A DNA stretch of 64,000 nucleotides from Nostoc sp. TH1S01 (lineage in GTDB: Bacteria > Cyanobacteriota > Cyanobacteriia > Cyanobacteriales > Nostocaceae). The position numbers were made by a program, and so were the translations under genes. A model generated the notes under the pieces. The model saw nothing but the letters and a program-made list of their open reading frames with translations, made no database searches and was not told the origin of the DNA. How positions within the stretch are numbered: position 1 is the stretch's first letter; every line of letters begins with the position of its first letter. The stretch covers positions 1-64,000 of the forward strand of contig JAGKSW010000033.1 in NCBI GenBank assembly GCA_018993265.1, in the 5' to 3' direction. Below, piece by piece: positions 441 through 31,508 of this stretch.

Positions 441-2159
441 TTATGGAATAAGGAAGTTTTTTTTTAAGCCTTTGGTGTTATCAAAATCCGCACTGATAAC
501 TTGAGATAATTCAACTGGGCTGAGAGACTGAACCAAATTTAAACCCAAAGTGAGACTAGAAATTTTTTGGGCGTAAGCGGGATGGAGATAAGAGATATAT
601 TGTGGCTTTTTGGCAATATAAGTCTGAAAAAATGGCACACTGAAAGCATTGATATAACGACGCGCTTGCAAAACATCACCAACAACATCCGCGGGTAATG
701 CTATTTGTCCAGAACTGGGGTTTCCATCTCCAATAGTAGAAAAATGAGTTCCACCGACAAGGGTGATGAGATATTTTTGGGAATTGGTCAACCAAGAAAA
801 AGGTAAAATTTGCTCGTATAAAGCGGGTGCAACAGTATCATTGCTACTAGCAACAATCATCACGGGTGTTTTTAGCTGGCTTAAACCAGTTTTACCAAAA
901 ATAGAACTGGTAACTGGGTTAACCGCGATCGCAGCTTTTACCCTATTATCGTGTAAATTGCCATTAACAGATTGGTTTGGCAGTTCTAGGGCGCGACACT
1001 GAAATAATAAAGACATATTCCAAGTGCGGTGCAGTGCTTCAGTTGTACAATCTTGTTGGAGTTGGGCAAAATTAATCTTCGCACCCGCCAAAGCCAGGGC
1101 TGTATAACCACCTAAAGAATGACCAAAAACGCCTACTTGTTGTAAGTTGAGTTTACCTTTAAATCGAGCATCGGATTGGTTACCTTTTTCTAGCTGATTC
1201 AAGATATATTTGATATCTAAAGGTCGGTTTTGAAATTCATCTGCGGTGAGTAATTGCGTAGCTTGTTCTGGAAGTAGCGATCGCAATTGTTTTGTATCAC
1301 TCCCTGGATGGTTGGGAACAACTACCGCAAACCCATAAGAAGCTAGATGAGTTGCTAAATATTGAAAGTTACTACTATCTGTACCCAAACCATGTGAAAT
1401 TACAACTACTGGTGCAGGAACTAAAAGATTAGGAAGATAAATATCAGTTAATAATGTGCGGTTACGCGTGGAGTCAAAATAATTTAACGTATATTTTTGT
1501 GACTTCAAGCTTCCCGGTTTTTGCAAATCGGGTAATTGTGAGAAGTTACTAGGCTTGGGGATTGTAATAGCTTCTAGATTAGACCTTTTGGTAACTGTGG
1601 CGATCGCTTGACTAGTAGCTTGAACTAAACTTTCTAGTTCTGTGGCGATGCTAAAACTAAGTCCTAAATCAATGCGAATACTGTTAGCCGGATACTTGCG
1701 TAACAGATTTAATAAAGTTAAATTATCTGGTTCTGCAACAGCGAGAATTAACGCCGAACGCATCTCATCTAATATCGGTTGCGTTTGCGGCGCTTTGTTT
1801 TGAATTACTTCGGTAAAACGGCGGAGTAAAAATTCTCCTTGTGGTGTAGAAAGAAATTGCGACACTACCGCCGGACTAGATTTTACAGGCGTAATTAAAA
1901 TCCGGCGTAATTCCTGAAACTGTTGTGCAGGGATATATTGCTGATAAATTGCTAATTCATCATCAATGACACCTTTTTTGGCATAATTCTCCAAAGCAGT
2001 TACAGAAACTGATAGCTCTAAAGCTGAATATGAGATATAAACTCGTTCTGCTGCTTTTACAGATGTATTAATTCCCAATATTGGTAACAAGGTTGACAAA
2101 ACTAGCAAGAGCGAATTTCTTTTCAGGGTGCTAACCCAATTACTCAATAAACTATTCAT
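441..2159 (-). CDS. Secreted alpha/beta hydrolase with DUF1400-type N-terminus
   Basis: 572 residues. An N-terminal hydrophobic stretch ending near VKAAERV looks like a signal peptide, so the enzyme probably acts in the periplasm or outside. Residues about 37-190 match the helical DUF1400 region that cyanobacteria attach to lipase-like hydrolases (starts VYISYSALELSVSV). The hydrolase fold follows: the oxyanion segment VVISHGLGTDSSN, the nucleophile elbow GHSLGG with Ser348, an acid-loop candidate in VASSNDTVAP and a late GGTHFS histidine. Family knowledge suggests carboxylesterase or PAF-acetylhydrolase-like activity; the substrate is unknown. The gene stands alone. Confidence 0.75.
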   Translation of the reverse strand: MNSLLSNWVSTLKRNSLLLVLSTLLPILGINTSVKAAERVYISYSALELSVSVTALENYAKKGVIDDELAIYQQYIPAQQFQELRRILITPVKSSPAVVSQFLSTPQGEFLLRRFTEVIQNKAPQTQPILDEMRSALILAVAEPDNLTLLNLLRKYPANSIRIDLGLSFSIATELESLVQATSQAIATVTKRSNLEAITIPKPSNFSQLPDLQKPGSLKSQKYTLNYFDSTRNRTLLTDIYLPNLLVPAPVVVISHGLGTDSSNFQYLATHLASYGFAVVVPNHPGSDTKQLRSLLPEQATQLLTADEFQNRPLDIKYILNQLEKGNQSDARFKGKLNLQQVGVFGHSLGGYTALALAGAKINFAQLQQDCTTEALHRTWNMSLLFQCRALELPNQSVNGNLHDNRVKAAIAVNPVTSSIFGKTGLSQLKTPVMIVASSNDTVAPALYEQILPFSWLTNSQKYLITLVGGTHFSTIGDGNPSSGQIALPADVVGDVLQARRYINAFSVPFFQTYIAKKPQYISYLHPAYAQKISSLTLGLNLVQSLSPVELSQVISADFDNTKGLKKNFLIP

Positions 2160-2375
2160 CGCTCAACTTTGTCGGTGATATTGTTTCACTGGATGTTGGC
2201 TTTGGTAGTTATTAACGCACCCTATTTACTAATTTGTAATCTTTAAATAATCATGCCAAGTTTGAAGTTTGTATTTACTTTGATACTTGAGGTTAATTAC
2301 AAACTAGGTTGACACACTCGCAGAAATCATAACAAATCAGAAATGACTCTGCCTCGGTATCTGCAATGTAATAAA

Positions 2376-2460
2376 CCCCTCAGACTAGAAGTCTGGGGCT
2401 ATACAAACAAAGCCCACCTAGCCTATTGGCAGCAGCAAAGCCGAACGCAGGCTAATTATT
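2376..2460. repeat. Small hairpin repeat of IS200/IS605-end type
   Basis: CCCCTCAGAC at 2376-2385 faces GTCTGGGG at 2391-2398. It is followed by CTATACAAACAAAGCCCACCT and a second weak hairpin. This arrangement is familiar from Nostoc genomes as a dispersed hairpin element, probably derived from the end of an IS200/IS605-type element. No transposase is adjacent. The short open frame across it looks spurious. The rest of 2160-2514 is AT-rich with no gene that I can support. Confidence 0.5.
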
Positions 2461-2514
2461 TTTATTATGCTTTTAGCGATAAAATACTACAATATATAAT
2501 TCTATTAACTTTAT

Positions 2515-3438
2515 TTAAACTTTTTTACCCAAAGCGATCGCCATCGAACCAGCTACTACTAACACTGCACCAATCATACCAGTAAGAGTGAGATTTTCTG
2601 CGGGAATTAAACTAGGTGTTAATAGTGCCACTAACTCAACAGCAATTAATGTCACAATCGGTGCTAAAGTCAACACAGCACTGACGCGGGATGCTTCCCA
2701 ATGTTCTAATGATTCGGCAAACGCACCATAAGCAATTAAAGTATTTAAAGCACAAAAAATTAACACACCCAACTGTAAATTATTTAATTTAAAAATAGTT
2801 GCTGGTTTTGCCAAAGGTGTGAAAAATAAAGCCGAACCGCCATAAATCATCATCATGATGTTAGGCGAAGATAATGATTGTAATAGCTGTTTTTGTGCTA
2901 AAGCGTAAATAGCCCAAACTGCTGCACCTAAGACTACCAAACTACTACCATAAATATATGTGCTATGTGCGGTAATTAAATTAGCGAGTTGGTCGTGGAA
3001 AAATATTATATACCCACAAATTAATACACCAACTCCCAGCCATTGACGGAGTGTATAACGTTCGTGAAAAATTACTAAACCGCCTAAGCCTAATAACAAA
3101 GTCGCTAATTGAATCAGTACTTCTGCATTCGCCGGGGATGTTAGCGCCAAACCCTGCATAAAAAAGCAGTAATTAGCCCCTAACATGAGTGTAGCGATCG
3201 CTAATAACTTCCAAGTATGAGAATGCAGTTGGTGTAACTTTGGTAACTGACCACGCACTCCTAAATAAATAGTTAGCAGTGCGAATGATCCCAAAAAGCG
3301 AAACCAAACTACTGTGTAGACATCAAGCACTTGCAGCATCACCGCCAGCGCCAGCGGTAAAATTCCCCACAATAAAACAGTCAGTAGAGATAAGGCCAGC
3401 CCTAAACGCCAGCGCCCAGAGTTTTGATGTAATGACAT
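2515..3438 (-). CDS. EamA/DMT-family membrane transporter
   Basis: 307 residues, almost entirely hydrophobic, with about ten predicted membrane helices in two repeated halves, the layout of the drug/metabolite transporter (EamA, RhaT-like) superfamily. The first half starts LALSLLTVLLWGILPLALAV; the second has the family-style ALNTLIAYGAFAESLEHWEASRVSAV region. Members export amino acids, nucleosides or other small metabolites across the inner membrane; nothing here identifies the substrate. It is transcribed alone, with a gap of over 350 bases on its 3' side. Confidence 0.85.
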   Translation of the reverse strand: MSLHQNSGRWRLGLALSLLTVLLWGILPLALAVMLQVLDVYTVVWFRFLGSFALLTIYLGVRGQLPKLHQLHSHTWKLLAIATLMLGANYCFFMQGLALTSPANAEVLIQLATLLLGLGGLVIFHERYTLRQWLGVGVLICGYIIFFHDQLANLITAHSTYIYGSSLVVLGAAVWAIYALAQKQLLQSLSSPNIMMMIYGGSALFFTPLAKPATIFKLNNLQLGVLIFCALNTLIAYGAFAESLEHWEASRVSAVLTLAPIVTLIAVELVALLTPSLIPAENLTLTGMIGAVLVVAGSMAIALGKKV

Positions 3439-25561: not shown

Positions 25562-25951
25562 TCATACCCACATCCGATGAACATCAGAATAAGCATCAAA
25601 TTTTGTATCACGGCTAATGATGACTAAGGAGTGATTAATAGCTTGTGCAATCAACATCCGGTCAAATGGATCACCATGATGTAGAGGAAGATTACGAACT
25701 AGAACTGTATCATTAAAAGAAATTCCCAACATTAGGATATCTGAAGCCTCCATTGCAGAACCTATAGTTTCATAGCTTTTTTGCAATGATAATTTGCCAA
25801 GTTTTAATTTGATAGCAATTTCCCAAAGACTAACGATACTGAGATAAACCACATCGGCGCTATCAATGATTATCCTCAGATTATCTGGAAGGTGAGAGTC
25901 GTTTTCAGTCAGCCAGATAAAGGCATGAGTATCTAAAAGAAAGTTACTCAT
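25562..25951 (-). CDS. VapC-type PIN-domain toxin
   Basis: 129 residues. The PIN-domain acidic residues are in place: Asp7 (LLDTHAFIWL), Glu44 (SLWEIAIKLKLGKL), Asp94/Asp97 (HGDPFDRMLIAQA) and Asp115 (ISRDTKFDAY). This is the subgroup of type II toxins whose Mg-dependent RNase activity cuts tRNA or rRNA. The start overlaps the stop of the antitoxin gene by ATGA, implying translational coupling. It looks complete and active. Confidence 0.9.
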   Translation of the reverse strand: MSNFLLDTHAFIWLTENDSHLPDNLRIIIDSADVVYLSIVSLWEIAIKLKLGKLSLQKSYETIGSAMEASDILMLGISFNDTVLVRNLPLHHGDPFDRMLIAQAINHSLVIISRDTKFDAYSDVHRMWV

Positions 25952-26178
25952 TGCATATATTCCTGAAAATCTGAGAGAGGTTCGTCAAAGTCATCAGGTA
26001 AAGGTAAAACAAAAGTGCCTTCTAAAATGCCAGAACGGCGTTTTTTTGGTACTACACTTTCCTGAGAAACAGTCTTAGAATAATTCTCAAGTAAATATTG
26101 GGCATAATGCAAGAGTTCTTGTTTTAGTTGCTCTGGCATTTGCTCTAGAGTATGTAAAATTTCTGCATCAACAGTCAT
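25948..26178 (-). CDS. Antitoxin, DUF2281-like, paired with the PIN toxin
   Basis: 76 residues, MTVDAEILHTLEQMPEQLKQELLHYAQYLLENY: a short helical N-terminus typical of DUF2281-family antitoxins, then a charged linker and an acidic tail (PLPDDFDEPLSDF) likely to wrap the toxin. It precedes the toxin in an overlapping operon. As in other type II systems the complex probably represses its own promoter, but no operator was identified. Confidence 0.8.
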   Translation of the reverse strand: MTVDAEILHTLEQMPEQLKQELLHYAQYLLENYSKTVSQESVVPKKRRSGILEGTFVLPLPDDFDEPLSDFQEYMQ

Positions 26179-27624: not shown

Positions 27625-27747
27625 CTAATGATCACACTTACTAAGGACTTAATGCAGAAGCAATTTGGGAATTTGTTCGTGTTATAATCCGGGTTTATAA
27701 CGCCGCAGATATCTGGTAAGTTGTGCGCCTCAAAGGAGATTCAGAAC

Positions 27748-28356
27748 TTGGCTCAACCAGAAGAAAATCCTCAAAGTAGTTCATACAAAACTATTTTAGT
27801 ATTAGCATCCAGCCCAACAAATGGAGCTAGATTACGCCTGGATCAAGAAGTCCGGGAAATTGATGAGGGTTTGCGAAGATCGCAGCACAGAGACAAGTTT
27901 AATTTGCAGGCAAAATGGGCAGTTACTCCTGATTCTTTGCGTCGTGCTTTGTTGGAATTGAATCCAGAGATTGTTCACTTTTGCGGACATGGTTCGGGTG
28001 AAGATGGACTAGTTTTGGAAGACGATACTGGTAAAGGTCAACTTGTACCCATCCCAGCTTTAGCAAACTTATTTAAACGATTTGCTCCGCGAGGGTTAGA
28101 GTGTGTTGTTCTCAACGCTTGTTATTCTGAGATTCAAGCAGATGCGATCGCTGAATACATCGATTATGTTATCGGGATGAATAACAAAATTGGAGACAAG
28201 GCAGCAATTAAGTTTGCAGTTGGTTTTTATGATGAGTTAGGTGCTGGATGGTCGTATGAAGATGCTTATTATGGTGGTTGTGATGCGATCGCATTGCAAG
28301 GAATCCCGGAAGAACATACCCCAGTATTCAAAAATGTAAAAAAAAATCCCAATTAA
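27748..28356 (+). CDS. CHAT-domain caspase-like protein
   Basis: 202 residues from a TTG at 27748 with AAAGGAG 9 bases upstream; a TTG at 27721 lacks such a site. The CHAT fold is clear: KTILVLASSPTNGARLRLD, catalytic-type His81 in HFCGHG and Cys125 in VVLNACYS, then FAVGFYDELGAGWSYEDAYYGG. CHAT proteases are caspase relatives found as effectors in bacterial immune and cell-death systems such as gasdermin and gRAMP-linked systems. The reading frame ends just after an A9 run, and the NACHT gene follows in the -1 frame, so the two may form one protein by frameshifting. Dispersed MITE upstream. Confidence 0.88.
   Translation: MAQPEENPQSSSYKTILVLASSPTNGARLRLDQEVREIDEGLRRSQHRDKFNLQAKWAVTPDSLRRALLELNPEIVHFCGHGSGEDGLVLEDDTGKGQLVPIPALANLFKRFAPRGLECVVLNACYSEIQADAIAEYIDYVIGMNNKIGDKAAIKFAVGFYDELGAGWSYEDAYYGGCDAIALQGIPEEHTPVFKNVKKNPN
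28338..28346 (+). promoter_or_regulatory. A9 slippery run at the CHAT/NACHT junction
   Basis: Nine consecutive A residues read GTA AAA AAA AAT in the CHAT frame. A -1 shift gives AAA AAA AAA TCC and joins directly to the open NACHT frame, bypassing the CHAT stop at 28354. A AAA AAA is a classical -1 slippage heptamer, and runs of A9 also favour polymerase slippage. Confidence 0.55.
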
Positions 28357-28391
28357 AGGCACAAAATCCGATTGATGACTCAGTAAAACAA

Positions 28392-30677
28392 GTGCGTCAT
28401 CGTCTCCACGATGATATTCAAAGTTCGCATGGTGTAATGCCTTTATGGGGAATAGACCGTTTGGTTTCTTTGGGCGATTTATTTGTAGATGTGAATATCC
28501 TGGAGTCACTCAGCAGTAACCACAGGTCGGAATTGGGTGATTTATGGCAGGATTTTGCAAAGGGGAATTTTAGCGATCGCAGTTTAGAACGAATTGGTTT
28601 AGGTAGACAACAGCAACGCATATCAGGGTTAGCTGCGCTGGAACGGAATACAAATTTGATGGTAGTGGGTAAACCTGGTTCGGGGAAAACGACGTATTTG
28701 CAAAGAATCGTCACCGAATGTAATGATGGCAAACTACAACCACAGCAAATTCCTGTATTGATTAAACTGCGGTATTTTGTAGACGATGGAAATAAGTATG
28801 GATATAACTTAGAGCTGTTTTTGGCACAGCTTTGGCGGTTGAGTAATGCAGACGTAGAATTGATCCTCAATCAAGGACGAGCCTTGGTATTGCTGGATGG
28901 CTTGGATGAAGTGACAGGGGAAGCAGGAAAGCAAATCGCCAAAGAAATTAAGCGTTTCGCCCGTGTTTATCCGCAGTTGCAAGTGGTAGTGACTTGTCGG
29001 ACGCAAACCCTACCAGATTTATTCGATTGGAAATCACAGCACTTCACCTGTGTAGAAGTAGCTGATTTTAATGAGGAGCAGGTAAGAGCATTTGCAGCGC
29101 ATTGGTTTAGTACTGTGTATGCAGATGCAGAGGAGGGGAAAAAACAAGCGCGAGAATTTTTAGAACAGTTGTTTCTAGGGGAAAATAAGACAATTCGAGA
29201 ACTTGCGATTACGCCAATTTTGCTAAGTTTGACTTGTGCAGTCTTCCAGCAAACAAAGAAATTTTACTCCAAGCGTTCCAAGTTATATGAAGAAGGGTTG
29301 GAATTACTCTTGGAAAAGTGGGATCAATCGCGCTCAATTGAGAGGAATGAGATTTATCGAGATTTATCTGTAAAACGTAAGTTGGAGCTTTTAAGCTTTT
29401 TAGCAGTGAAGAAGTTTGTGCAGCAACAGTATGTATTGTTTGAGCAGGAGGAGTTAGAAGGGTATATCGGAGAATTTTTGGGAATTGAACAAAGGGAAAG
29501 TCGAGGGGTTTTAAAAGCAATTGAGTCTCAGCATGGCTTGTTGATTGAACGAGCGTATAAGGTTTGGTCATTTTCACACCTAACTTTTCAAGAATACCTT
29601 GTTTCAGAAGTGTTGGCTCGGAACTATGAACCTGTCAATTTAACTAATCAAAAAATACAAGATAATATCTCACAGTATATAACTGAAAAGCATTGGAGAG
29701 AGGTTTGTTTGATGACTGTAGAGAAGTTAGAAGATCCATTCAACTTTCTCATAGATATACAAACCAAGACTAATGAATTTCTTAAATCAGATGAAGATAT
29801 ACAAAGCTACATGAAATGGGTTTATGACAAATCTAATTCTATCGGGATGCCTGATATATTGGCAGCGTTAAGGGCATTTTATTTTGCCTTTTCAACAACA
29901 TATGAATGTGTTGGTGCAAAAGATGAAAATTATGAATTAGCAATGATATATGGCGGACTGCCCTACAAGCCATTTTCATGGTCTTCTAGAGATTTATACT
30001 ATTCTTCAGAATTCAATTTTTTCACTATGAAATCATCTATCTCTTTTGGTCTTTCACTATATCTTGGCTTGAATCTAGGTGTTGGGGCTGGTAGCATAGA
30101 TAGTATTTCAATAGATAGGATTTCAAATTTGATAAAATATCCATCTAAAAATGAGATGCAGAAAATGAAAATTGATTTTTGTGCAAAAGTTGTTATGGAT
30201 ATAGCTGAAAACTTCTCTAAAGGTAAAGTTTTTGGCAACGAGGACTCATACAATGCTGTAGAAAGTTTTCATTTTTACTTAAAATATATAATTCAAAGAA
30301 TATATGAGCTTGATTCTAATTCGCAAACTGCCGAATTGATAAGAATTAATGATCAGATTCCAGAAAGAAAATTTAGCTTCAACAGATTGGAAGCAGATAA
30401 TAACGAAAAATCATTAAATAATTTTTGGCGAGAAAATGGCAAGAGTGTGCTTGAAAAACTACGAGAAGTATTTATTAAGAGTCGTCAGATTGGATATGAT
30501 TGGCAATTTAGTGATATCCAAAAAGAAAAACTTGAAGAATACTATTCCTTAAATAAACTTCTTTTAGATTGCTTAAGTCAAAGTGAGATTGACTTAGATA
30601 AGAAAAAGACTATTGAGGCAGAGCTTTTACTGCCGAATACTGAAATTGAAAAACGTAAACGTGAAACAGCCGAGTAA
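28392..30677 (+). CDS. NACHT-family NTPase (NLR-like) following CHAT
   Basis: 761 residues from the GTG at 28392; the frame is open further upstream through the A9 run, so the start is uncertain and fusion to CHAT is possible (about 976 residues in total). NACHT motifs: Walker A GKPGSGKT (residues 93-100), Walker B LVLLDGLDEV (about 165-174) and the late helical motif FSHLTFQEYLVSEVL typical of cyanobacterial NACHT ATPases. The C-terminal 300 residues are helical, charged and unrecognised, with lower GC than the NTPase part, and would be the sensor region. By analogy with bacterial NACHT defence proteins it may detect phage or stress signals and activate CHAT. No neighbouring gene clarifies the trigger. 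Confidence 0.85.
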   Translation: MRHRLHDDIQSSHGVMPLWGIDRLVSLGDLFVDVNILESLSSNHRSELGDLWQDFAKGNFSDRSLERIGLGRQQQRISGLAALERNTNLMVVGKPGSGKTTYLQRIVTECNDGKLQPQQIPVLIKLRYFVDDGNKYGYNLELFLAQLWRLSNADVELILNQGRALVLLDGLDEVTGEAGKQIAKEIKRFARVYPQLQVVVTCRTQTLPDLFDWKSQHFTCVEVADFNEEQVRAFAAHWFSTVYADAEEGKKQAREFLEQLFLGENKTIRELAITPILLSLTCAVFQQTKKFYSKRSKLYEEGLELLLEKWDQSRSIERNEIYRDLSVKRKLELLSFLAVKKFVQQQYVLFEQEELEGYIGEFLGIEQRESRGVLKAIESQHGLLIERAYKVWSFSHLTFQEYLVSEVLARNYEPVNLTNQKIQDNISQYITEKHWREVCLMTVEKLEDPFNFLIDIQTKTNEFLKSDEDIQSYMKWVYDKSNSIGMPDILAALRAFYFAFSTTYECVGAKDENYELAMIYGGLPYKPFSWSSRDLYYSSEFNFFTMKSSISFGLSLYLGLNLGVGAGSIDSISIDRISNLIKYPSKNEMQKMKIDFCAKVVMDIAENFSKGKVFGNEDSYNAVESFHFYLKYIIQRIYELDSNSQTAELIRINDQIPERKFSFNRLEADNNEKSLNNFWRENGKSVLEKLREVFIKSRQIGYDWQFSDIQKEKLEEYYSLNKLLLDCLSQSEIDLDKKKTIEAELLLPNTEIEKRKRETAE

Positions 30678-30695: not shown

Positions 30696-31122
30696 CTAAG
30701 TTATAGTCCAATCCTCAAGAGATAAATCAGGTATTTTGCTAAAATCTTTGTGATTACGTGTAACTACAATCGCATTGTTAGCCAGAGCGATCGCAGCTAT
30801 TCTTAAATCTTGTGTGCCTATGTTAATTTTTTGCACAACGTAAATTTTGGTAGCAAGTGAATGCTGCGTTATCAAACTCCAACAAATTCATCTGGCAAAA
30901 GTAAATCTGAGTTATTCATAAATTCCGATGAGCAATTGCTAACAATTCTGGTTTAGTAGCACATTTATTGATAGTGGCTAGTCTACCTCTCAATTGTTCT
31001 TCAAGGGTAACAGTTGTCACAAATATATTAGTACTACCAACAGCTTGAGTGCGTTTTAGAATTTGAGCATTACCATGCTGAGAAAGAGTAACATGATCAG
31101 TATCAAGGATATATCGGCTCAA
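30696..31122 (-). pseudogene. Disrupted VapC-type PIN toxin
   Basis: The N-terminal part (31122-30916, MSRYILDTDHVTLSQHGN) has the first PIN aspartates but stops at a TGA. The same frame then continues as MNLLEFDNAAFTCYQNLR, after which a one-base frameshift near 30845 leads to the C-terminal part INIGTQDLRIAAIALANNAI, including VVTRNHKDFSKIPDL, ending with TAG at 30696. Read across both lesions it is a full-length VapC of about 140 residues. One nonsense and one frameshift mutation make it inactive. The paired antitoxin gene immediately upstream is intact. Confidence 0.8.
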
Positions 31123-31508
31123 GCTGACTGCTTCTCCTCTAAGGAAGCATTATAAGCAGCGATTTCTGCATCTAATTCCTGTCGATATGCAGCCATATTT
31201 TCGACAAAATCATCAAAAAGCGGATCATCTTGGAAAACACCTGCAAACTTTACCCAAGGGTTGGATTCTGCTGATGGAATTTCCTCTGATGTTCTCATCT
31301 TTTTCGAGATCATATCTGTAATTCGTGCTTGCAGGGCTGGATCTGATACTTCAGCCGCAATCTCTCTCAAAAAAGCGAGATATTCCTCTGATAACAATTT
31401 CTGTTTTTCTTCTGATTGCATAGTATTGAAAATTGAAGACTTAAGAATTTCAAGAACTGTATCTCCGTCATTGCTAATTCTAATATCTCCTAGAAGAAAA
31501 AACTTCAC
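31119..31508 (-). CDS. Putative antitoxin-position protein upstream of VapC remnant
   Basis: 129 residues (possibly 100 if it starts at the internal Met at 31421, MQSEEKQKLLSEEYLAFL). Acidic and helical, ending with a coiled-coil-like AAYRQELDAEIAAYNAS. It overlaps the VapC pseudogene start by ATGA, the usual antitoxin-toxin arrangement, but I do not recognise a DNA-binding domain. It may have lost its partner's constraint. A MITE lies just upstream (31519-31634). Confidence 0.6.
   Translation of the reverse strand: MKFFLLGDIRISNDGDTVLEILKSSIFNTMQSEEKQKLLSEEYLAFLREIAAEVSDPALQARITDMISKKMRTSEEIPSAESNPWVKFAGVFQDDPLFDDFVENMAAYRQELDAEIAAYNASLEEKQSA

What the first reader, a model, noticed from the sequence alone, without database searches (positions are those of the whole stretch)
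27748..30677. CHAT protease and NACHT NTPase joined by an A9 slippery run: possible frameshifted NLR-like immune protein
The CHAT gene (His81, Cys125 present) ends just after nine A residues (28338-28346). The NACHT frame is -1 relative to it and open through that run, so a -1 shift at A AAA AAA yields one CHAT-NACHT protein of about 976 residues. CHAT and NACHT are known bacterial cell-death/defence modules, and fused forms exist. Possible explanations are programmed frameshifting or transcriptional slippage (giving two products), a recent inactivating indel, or an assembly error. The C-terminal 300 residues are an unrecognised sensor-like region.
Basis: partly seen in the sequence, partly recalled or inferred. 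Interest (0 to 1): 0.8.

Follow-up and report, generated by a model that had tools for sequence, protein, structure and literature searches.

The report
Slippage-linked CHAT protease and NLR receptor
A cyanobacterial gene pair for a death-type protease and an immune-receptor-like ATPase lies in two overlapping reading frames joined by a run of nine A bases, and many related cyanobacteria keep the same arrangement, so the cell probably slips on the A run to make both a short protease and a protease-receptor fusion.

Summary
In detail: CHAT (27748-28356) and NACHT (-1 frame, open 28284-30674) overlap at A9 (28338-28346). Of 28 deduplicated junctions compared, 16 NACHT copies and 2 NB-ARC copies lie in -1 behind an A8-A10 run, 5 are in one frame, 2 in +1 (both truncated), 1 is separated, 1 is a remnant, 1 ends with its record. 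Twelve of the 16 keep 536-776 codons after the run; NACHT dN/dS is 0.14-0.23 in the 20 split-split pairs among the 45 closest pairs. In those twelve, the run's two lysine codons are AAA and a 0-frame stop just after the run is kept in 12 of 12. The nearest relative (G002) is fused by one extra base, but the window has the length of the split relatives, so an assembly error or fresh indel is not needed. Best reading: conserved recoding (polymerase slippage or -1 ribosomal frameshifting) giving CHAT alone plus CHAT-NACHT, an NLR-like immune protein. No product, slippage or defence has been shown; restart at GTG 28392 is a live rival. The C-terminus is NCH2, not unrecognised.

The parts
27733..27738 (+). 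Shine-Dalgarno-like AAGGAG for CHAT
   Evidence: read by eye; nine bases before TTG 27748
27748..28356 (+). CHAT gene, 202 aa, caspase-like protease; His81 at 27988-27990, Cys125 at 28120-28122
   Evidence: model and PDB match to SAVED-CHAT 8tl0
28338..28346 (+). A9 slippery run
   Evidence: recurs as A8-A10 in relatives
28354..28356 (+). 0-frame stop TAA that ends CHAT
   Evidence: a stop at the matching place in 12 of 12 long split copies
28338..30677 (+). -1 frame entered at the run: linker, NACHT, NCH2, stop; the frame is open from 28284
28392..28394 (+). GTG, first ATG/GTG/TTG of the NACHT frame after the run; possible restart site, no SD-like word
28656..29111 (+). NACHT domain PF05729; Walker A GKPGSGKT 28668-28691, Walker B LVLLDGLDEV 28884-28913
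   Evidence: Pfam; motifs read (names recalled)
30354..30635 (+). NCH2, NACHT C-terminal helical domain 2 (PF22727)

Best explanation
One NLR-like immune gene expressed by recoding. Standard decoding ends at TAA 28354 and gives a free CHAT caspase-like protease. At the A run a fraction of the product shifts by -1 and continues into NACHT-NCH2, giving a 976-aa CHAT-NACHT protein. I favour RNA polymerase slippage (one A added to some transcripts) over -1 ribosomal frameshifting, but both are open. Inferred function: NACHT-NCH2 senses a trigger and assembles, which brings CHAT heads together and switches on proteolysis that harms the cell before a phage spreads; slippage sets the ratio of protease to receptor and keeps the full-length form scarce. 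Shown: anatomy, recurrence of phase, run and stop, selection on NACHT. Inferred: slippage, the two products, triggering, defence.
For: 18 of 20 out-of-frame copies with an adjacent NACHT or NB-ARC are in -1, 2 in +1, out of 28 junctions (the NB-ARC frames). 12 of 16 NACHT -1 copies have 536-776 codons after the run. NACHT dN/dS 0.14-0.23 in the 20 split-split pairs among the 45 closest of 120 pairs, e.g. 0.17 at dS 0.18. Run lysines AAA in 12 of 12, against 1 of 11 other conserved Lys columns all AAA; A_AAA_AAG in phase in 10 of 12. Stop kept in 12 of 12 though the overlapping -1 residue is Leu, Ile or Val; Leu codon TTA in 9 of 9, against 3 of 71 other Leu columns with a single codon. One-frame copies fall apart on both trees. 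In G231, G288 and C057H the -1 frame has a stop right before the run, so a shift can only happen within it. Precedent: A8-A10 runs in Nostoc PCC 7120 IS elements (PMC1088944, Discussion read).
Against: No RNA, protein or ribosome data. GTG 45 nt after the run is present in 15 of 15 split copies. The 45-nt linker shows no coding signature in 6 disjoint pairs (differences 16/19/19 by codon position). One-frame copies keep the run and the TTAA as well, so these can persist without need. No downstream RNA structure (7 of 7 folds, z -1.68 to +1.47). The run is not exclusive to receptor partners: some CHATs end in A9 without one (L083, L148, L150, L153). Four of 16 -1 copies are truncated, so loss is common. 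The CHAT junctions are related by descent and are not independent.
Confidence: 0.66

Rival explanations
1. Two overlapping, separately translated genes: ribosomes stop at TAA 28354 and restart at GTG 28392 or nearby, giving CHAT and NACHT as partner proteins; the A run is incidental.
For: GTG at this codon in 15 of 15 split copies against 16 of 25 Val codons in relatives counted as without CHAT, Fisher p 0.015, not corrected for kinship. PGAP annotates CHAT and NACHT of Nostoc sp. UHCC 0926 as two genes. The linker has no coding signature in 6 disjoint pairs.
Against: No SD-like word before the GTG in 20 of 20 copies; GTG also in 4 of 5 one-frame copies, where no start is needed. In the NB-ARC copies the first start lies 84-87 nt after the run. 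It does not explain the invariant run and the kept phase.
Confidence: 0.2
2. Phase variation: the run changes length at replication, so some cells carry A9 (CHAT alone) and others A10 or A7 (CHAT-NACHT); switching is by DNA, not RNA.
For: A7 (G093) and A10 (G188, G135) one-frame relatives exist; PMC1088944 names replication slippage as the alternative for such runs.
Against: The A9 / -1 state prevails in long split copies (10 of 12 are A9, one A8, one A10); three Tolypothrix/Fremyella assemblies, of one or very close strains, all read A9.
Confidence: 0.1
3. The window copy is a recent frameshift mutant or an assembly error of a one-frame gene.
For: The nearest relative G002 is in one frame (994 codons); decayed copies are common, also in this genome (C129 remnant).
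Against: The window junction aligns without gaps with L158, L071, L056 and L048 while G002 has one base more; no further lesion in 776 codons; window-G002 NACHT dN/dS 0.20. No raw reads were available.
Confidence: 0.04

Closest known systems
SAVED-CHAT protease (PDB 8tl0)
   Same: CHAT fold and sequence: Foldseek E 3.7e-10, 26% identity; profile E 3e-20.
   Different: There CHAT is joined to a SAVED sensor in one frame; here to NACHT through a frame change.
Bacterial NLR-related NACHT proteins (bNACHT; PMC12169576, passages read)
   Same: Central NACHT with a C-terminal helical domain and an N-terminal effector; NACHT profile also finds human NLRC4 (8.2e-8).
   Different: bNACHT25/32 carry NCH1 and a DNase in one frame; here NCH2 and a CHAT protease in another frame.
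IS elements with A8-A10 transcriptional slippage sites, Nostoc PCC 7120 (PMC1088944, Discussion read)
   Same: Run length 8-10 A, two overlapping ORFs, fusion needed for the second ORF.
   Different: Transposases there; an immune-type protease and receptor here.
dnaX-type -1 ribosomal frameshifting (recalled; motif efficiency in PMC4066793, passages)
   Same: A_AAA_AAG in phase in 10 of 12 long split copies; two products from one gene.
   Different: The shifted product is the long one; no downstream structure found; the window has A_AAA_AAA.

Membership tests
CHAT protease family | Pfam CHAT above cutoff | tested here: met
   43.3 bits, cutoff 24
CHAT protease family | His-Cys dyad and caspase-like fold | tested here: met
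   13 of 13 invariant; best of five models pLDDT 74.8, the others down to 43.0; 8tl0 first hit
Bacterial NLR-related NACHT proteins | NACHT module with Walker A and B | tested here: met
   motifs
Bacterial NLR-related NACHT proteins | C-terminal NACHT-associated helical domain | tested here: met
   NCH2
Bacterial NLR-related NACHT proteins | Effector and NACHT in one protein | tested here: inconclusive
   one frame in 5 of 28 related junctions; in the window only by recoding
Bacterial NLR-related NACHT proteins | Anti-phage activity | not testable with these tools
   no assay
Transcriptional slippage genes | Conserved A run of about nine with a conserved out-of-frame extension | tested here: met
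Transcriptional slippage genes | mRNAs of mixed run length | not testable with these tools
   needs RNA
-1 programmed ribosomal frameshifting | Slippery heptamer in phase | tested here: met
   A_AAA_AAG in 10 of 12, A_AAA_AAA in the window and C057H
-1 programmed ribosomal frameshifting | Stimulatory downstream RNA structure (not needed in every case) | tested here: not met
   7 of 7 folds of 94 nt, z -1.68 to +1.47; pseudoknots not covered

The most novel reading that the evidence does not exclude
The end of this CHAT protease is a portable recoding junction: the same A8-A10 run plugs different receptors (NACHT-NCH2, NB-ARC, perhaps a third family) into a shifted frame, so that slippage sets the ratio of free effector protease to receptor-bound protease in a bacterial NLR-like immune system.
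Probability: 0.4. Interest if true: 0.86.

Novelty: new variant of a known kind. Interest (0 to 1): 0.72.

Why it matters
If true, the effector-to-receptor ratio of an NLR-type immune protein is set by slippage on a homopolymer: a built-in dosage control for a self-harming protease, and recoding of the kind known from transposons carried into immunity. It would also mean that gene callers split such receptors into two genes. A reporter of 150 bases would test it.

Tried and rejected
Assembly error or fresh indel as the main account: see rivals. Downstream stimulator: none in 7 folds. Coding signature in the 45-nt linker: none in 6 disjoint pairs (16/19/19), a weak third-position excess over all pairs (236/260/350). 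NB-ARC linker: 6 differences in 87 nt against 69 in the next 213, so a shared cassette may explain the likeness. Third partner (family of L150, no Pfam match for three proteins): one search gave 8 rows from 33 loci, 3 of them repeats; the 5 distinct junctions are one -1 with A9, two +1 with A9 and only partial matches, one in one frame with A8, one in one frame without a run. Unresolved. CHATs L190-L192 of other families have no run and no long shifted frame at their end. The pattern A8GTCCAATTA found 14 of 217 family genomes, reversed control 0, but in the order 9 of 388 against 6 of 388 for the control; 8 of those 9 lie at CHAT ends already known, the ninth (G053) has no CHAT upstream.

Papers. 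Listings (20 of 246; 17 of 17; 13 of 13; 20 of 177; 9 of 9; 4 of 4; 12 of 5,684; 15 of 637; 15 of 324) show no title or abstract start that describes frameshifting in CHAT, NACHT or STAND genes; most lists were capped, and few subscription papers are held. Term look-ups: PMC3711429 (GeneTack) no CHAT, NACHT or Nostoc; PMC5009743 no NACHT or Nostoc in the held two thirds; PMC10907252, PMC8195603, PMC7159879 no 'frameshift'.

Full report
What is there. From TTG 27748 a CHAT gene runs to TAA 28354-28356. Nine A stand at 28338-28346. The -1 frame is open from 28284 to 30674 and carries NACHT (7.7e-20) and NCH2 (PF22727, 6.7e-24), so the C-terminus is not unrecognised. A -1 shift gives 976 aa. His81 and Cys125 are invariant in 13 of 13 CHATs. 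The best of five AlphaFold models of CHAT has mean pLDDT 74.8, the worst 43.0; its first PDB match is SAVED-CHAT 8tl0 (E 3.7e-10), also the only hit of the CHAT profile (3e-20). The NACHT profile finds human NLRC4 (8.2e-8).

Own genome and genus. The genome has other NACHT genes of this type (C57, C111, C50, 35-38% identity) in single frames without CHAT, and a deleted remnant of a second CHAT-NACHT copy at a contig end (C129). Of 11 genomes of the genus, the window's included, one other (G002) has a full-length copy, 83% identical, in one frame of 994 codons, with the same upstream gene. Its junction reads ATC-A8-GG-CCC, the window's GT-A9-T-CCC: G002 is one base longer.

Relatives. I searched 217 genomes of the family with the joined protein; 388 of the order, 348 of the class and four small families (2, 20, 2 and 10 genomes) with CHAT; genome contigs with a NACHT alignment (43 loci); and plasmids with CHAT (30 records, 6 looked at). 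These samples overlap. One search took 28 deduplicated junctions: 16 NACHT copies in -1 behind A8-A10; 2 with the same CHAT end but an NB-ARC in -1 (G237, G288; phase); 1 record end (C057J, A9, -1 frame open for the 15 codons left); 5 in one frame (G002, G093, G135, G188, G040; in G135 a stop follows after 221 codons); 2 in +1 (G062, RivT60; A8, both truncated); 1 remnant (G045, A8); 1 separated without a run (G071, 258 nt gap). Left out: CHAT loci without an adjacent receptor, and two distant one-frame CHAT-NACHT genes without a run at the junction (G040:C202, G035:C165). Of the 16, 12 keep 536-776 codons after the run; 4 are truncated (16-187 codons).

NB-ARC case. In G237 the -1 frame is open for 748 codons after the run: NB-ARC 9.2e-13, EAD10 2.9e-31, GUN4 2.1e-34. 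G288 begins alike but stops after 105 codons. The first possible start is 84-87 nt after the run. The 87 nt are more alike than what follows (6 differences in 87, 69 in 213), so a shared cassette is possible. The 300-aa CHAT protein of G161 begins with EAD10 (4.7e-33), a domain thought to recruit effectors (PMC7159879, passages); others were not scanned. The window's CHAT frame (222 codons) is shorter and shows no EAD10.

Other junctions. The run is not confined to receptors: L083 (A9) continues in one frame into another C-terminus, and three CHATs (L148, L150, L153; A9) are followed by a third, unnamed family in +1, -1 and +1. This either widens the phenomenon or weakens its link to receptors.

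Selection. Nei-Gojobori on 16 copies, 480 codons after the run: in the 20 split-split pairs among the 45 closest of 120 pairs NACHT dN/dS is 0.14-0.23 (G114-G161 0.17 at dS 0.18); over all 45 it is 0.12-0.23; window-G002 0.20. NACHT is not decaying in the split state. In the 12 long split copies the two Lys codons in the run are AAA in 12 of 12; of 11 other conserved Lys columns 1 is all AAA. The 0-frame stop is kept in 12 of 12 (10 TAA, 2 TAG) although the overlapping -1 residue is Leu in 9, Ile in 2, Val in 1; the Leu codon is TTA in 9 of 9, while 3 of 71 other Leu columns use a single codon. These controls use the same sequences, so kinship is partly controlled. Against this, the one-frame copies still carry run and TTAA. 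A kept stop suggests that the short product matters.

Which state is old. On trees of 16 CHAT and 16 NACHT sequences the four one-frame copies included need 4 changes each, of which well-supported branches force 4 and 3; the shuffle test says only that the label is not clustered, and direction is my inference. The window aligns without gaps at the junction with L158, L071, L056 and L048; L065 and L050 lack 9 nt before the run. G188 and G135 have one more A, G093 two fewer, G002 one base more in all. The window most likely keeps the old length and G002 is derived.

Mechanism. A8-A10 runs are read as transcriptional slippage sites in IS elements of Nostoc PCC 7120 (PMC1088944, Discussion read). 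A_AAA_AAG, with high -1 efficiency in E. coli (PMC4066793, passages), is in phase in 10 of 12; the window and C057H offer A_AAA_AAA. No downstream structure stands out (7 folds, z -1.68 to +1.47). I lean to polymerase slippage. Restart at GTG 28392 is the main rival: GTG in 15 of 15 split copies against 16 of 25 Val codons in relatives counted as without CHAT (one odd match dropped; Fisher p 0.015), but no SD-like word in 20 of 20 and GTG in 4 of 5 one-frame copies.

Function. By family knowledge the likely role is defence by triggered proteolysis; that, and dosage control by slippage, are inference. Novelty: CHAT, NACHT and slippage sites are each known; I saw no account of the combination in the listings, most of them capped.

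Noticed in passing
L039, end of contig G000:C129 (36386-36656): Remnant of a second CHAT-NACHT copy (about 80% identical), CHAT residues 5-56 joined almost directly to the NACHT P-loop region, cut by the contig end.
   Followed up: partly
L148, L150, L153 and L193-L197: CHAT genes ending in A8-A9 runs followed by an unnamed protein family in -1, +1 or the same frame; a possible further recoding case.
   Followed up: partly
L083 (G036) 1099-3000: CHAT with the same A9 end that continues in one frame into a different C-terminal part.
   Followed up: no
L163, Nostoc sp. C057 plasmid p057_H, 230-6294: A 4.3-kb gene annotated as metallophosphoesterase ends in this CHAT and an A10 run, with NACHT in -1 behind it.
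   Followed up: partly
window 25562-26178 and 30916-31508, minus strand: Small ORF pairs that look like PIN-type toxin-antitoxin modules on both sides of the locus; by eye only.
   Followed up: no
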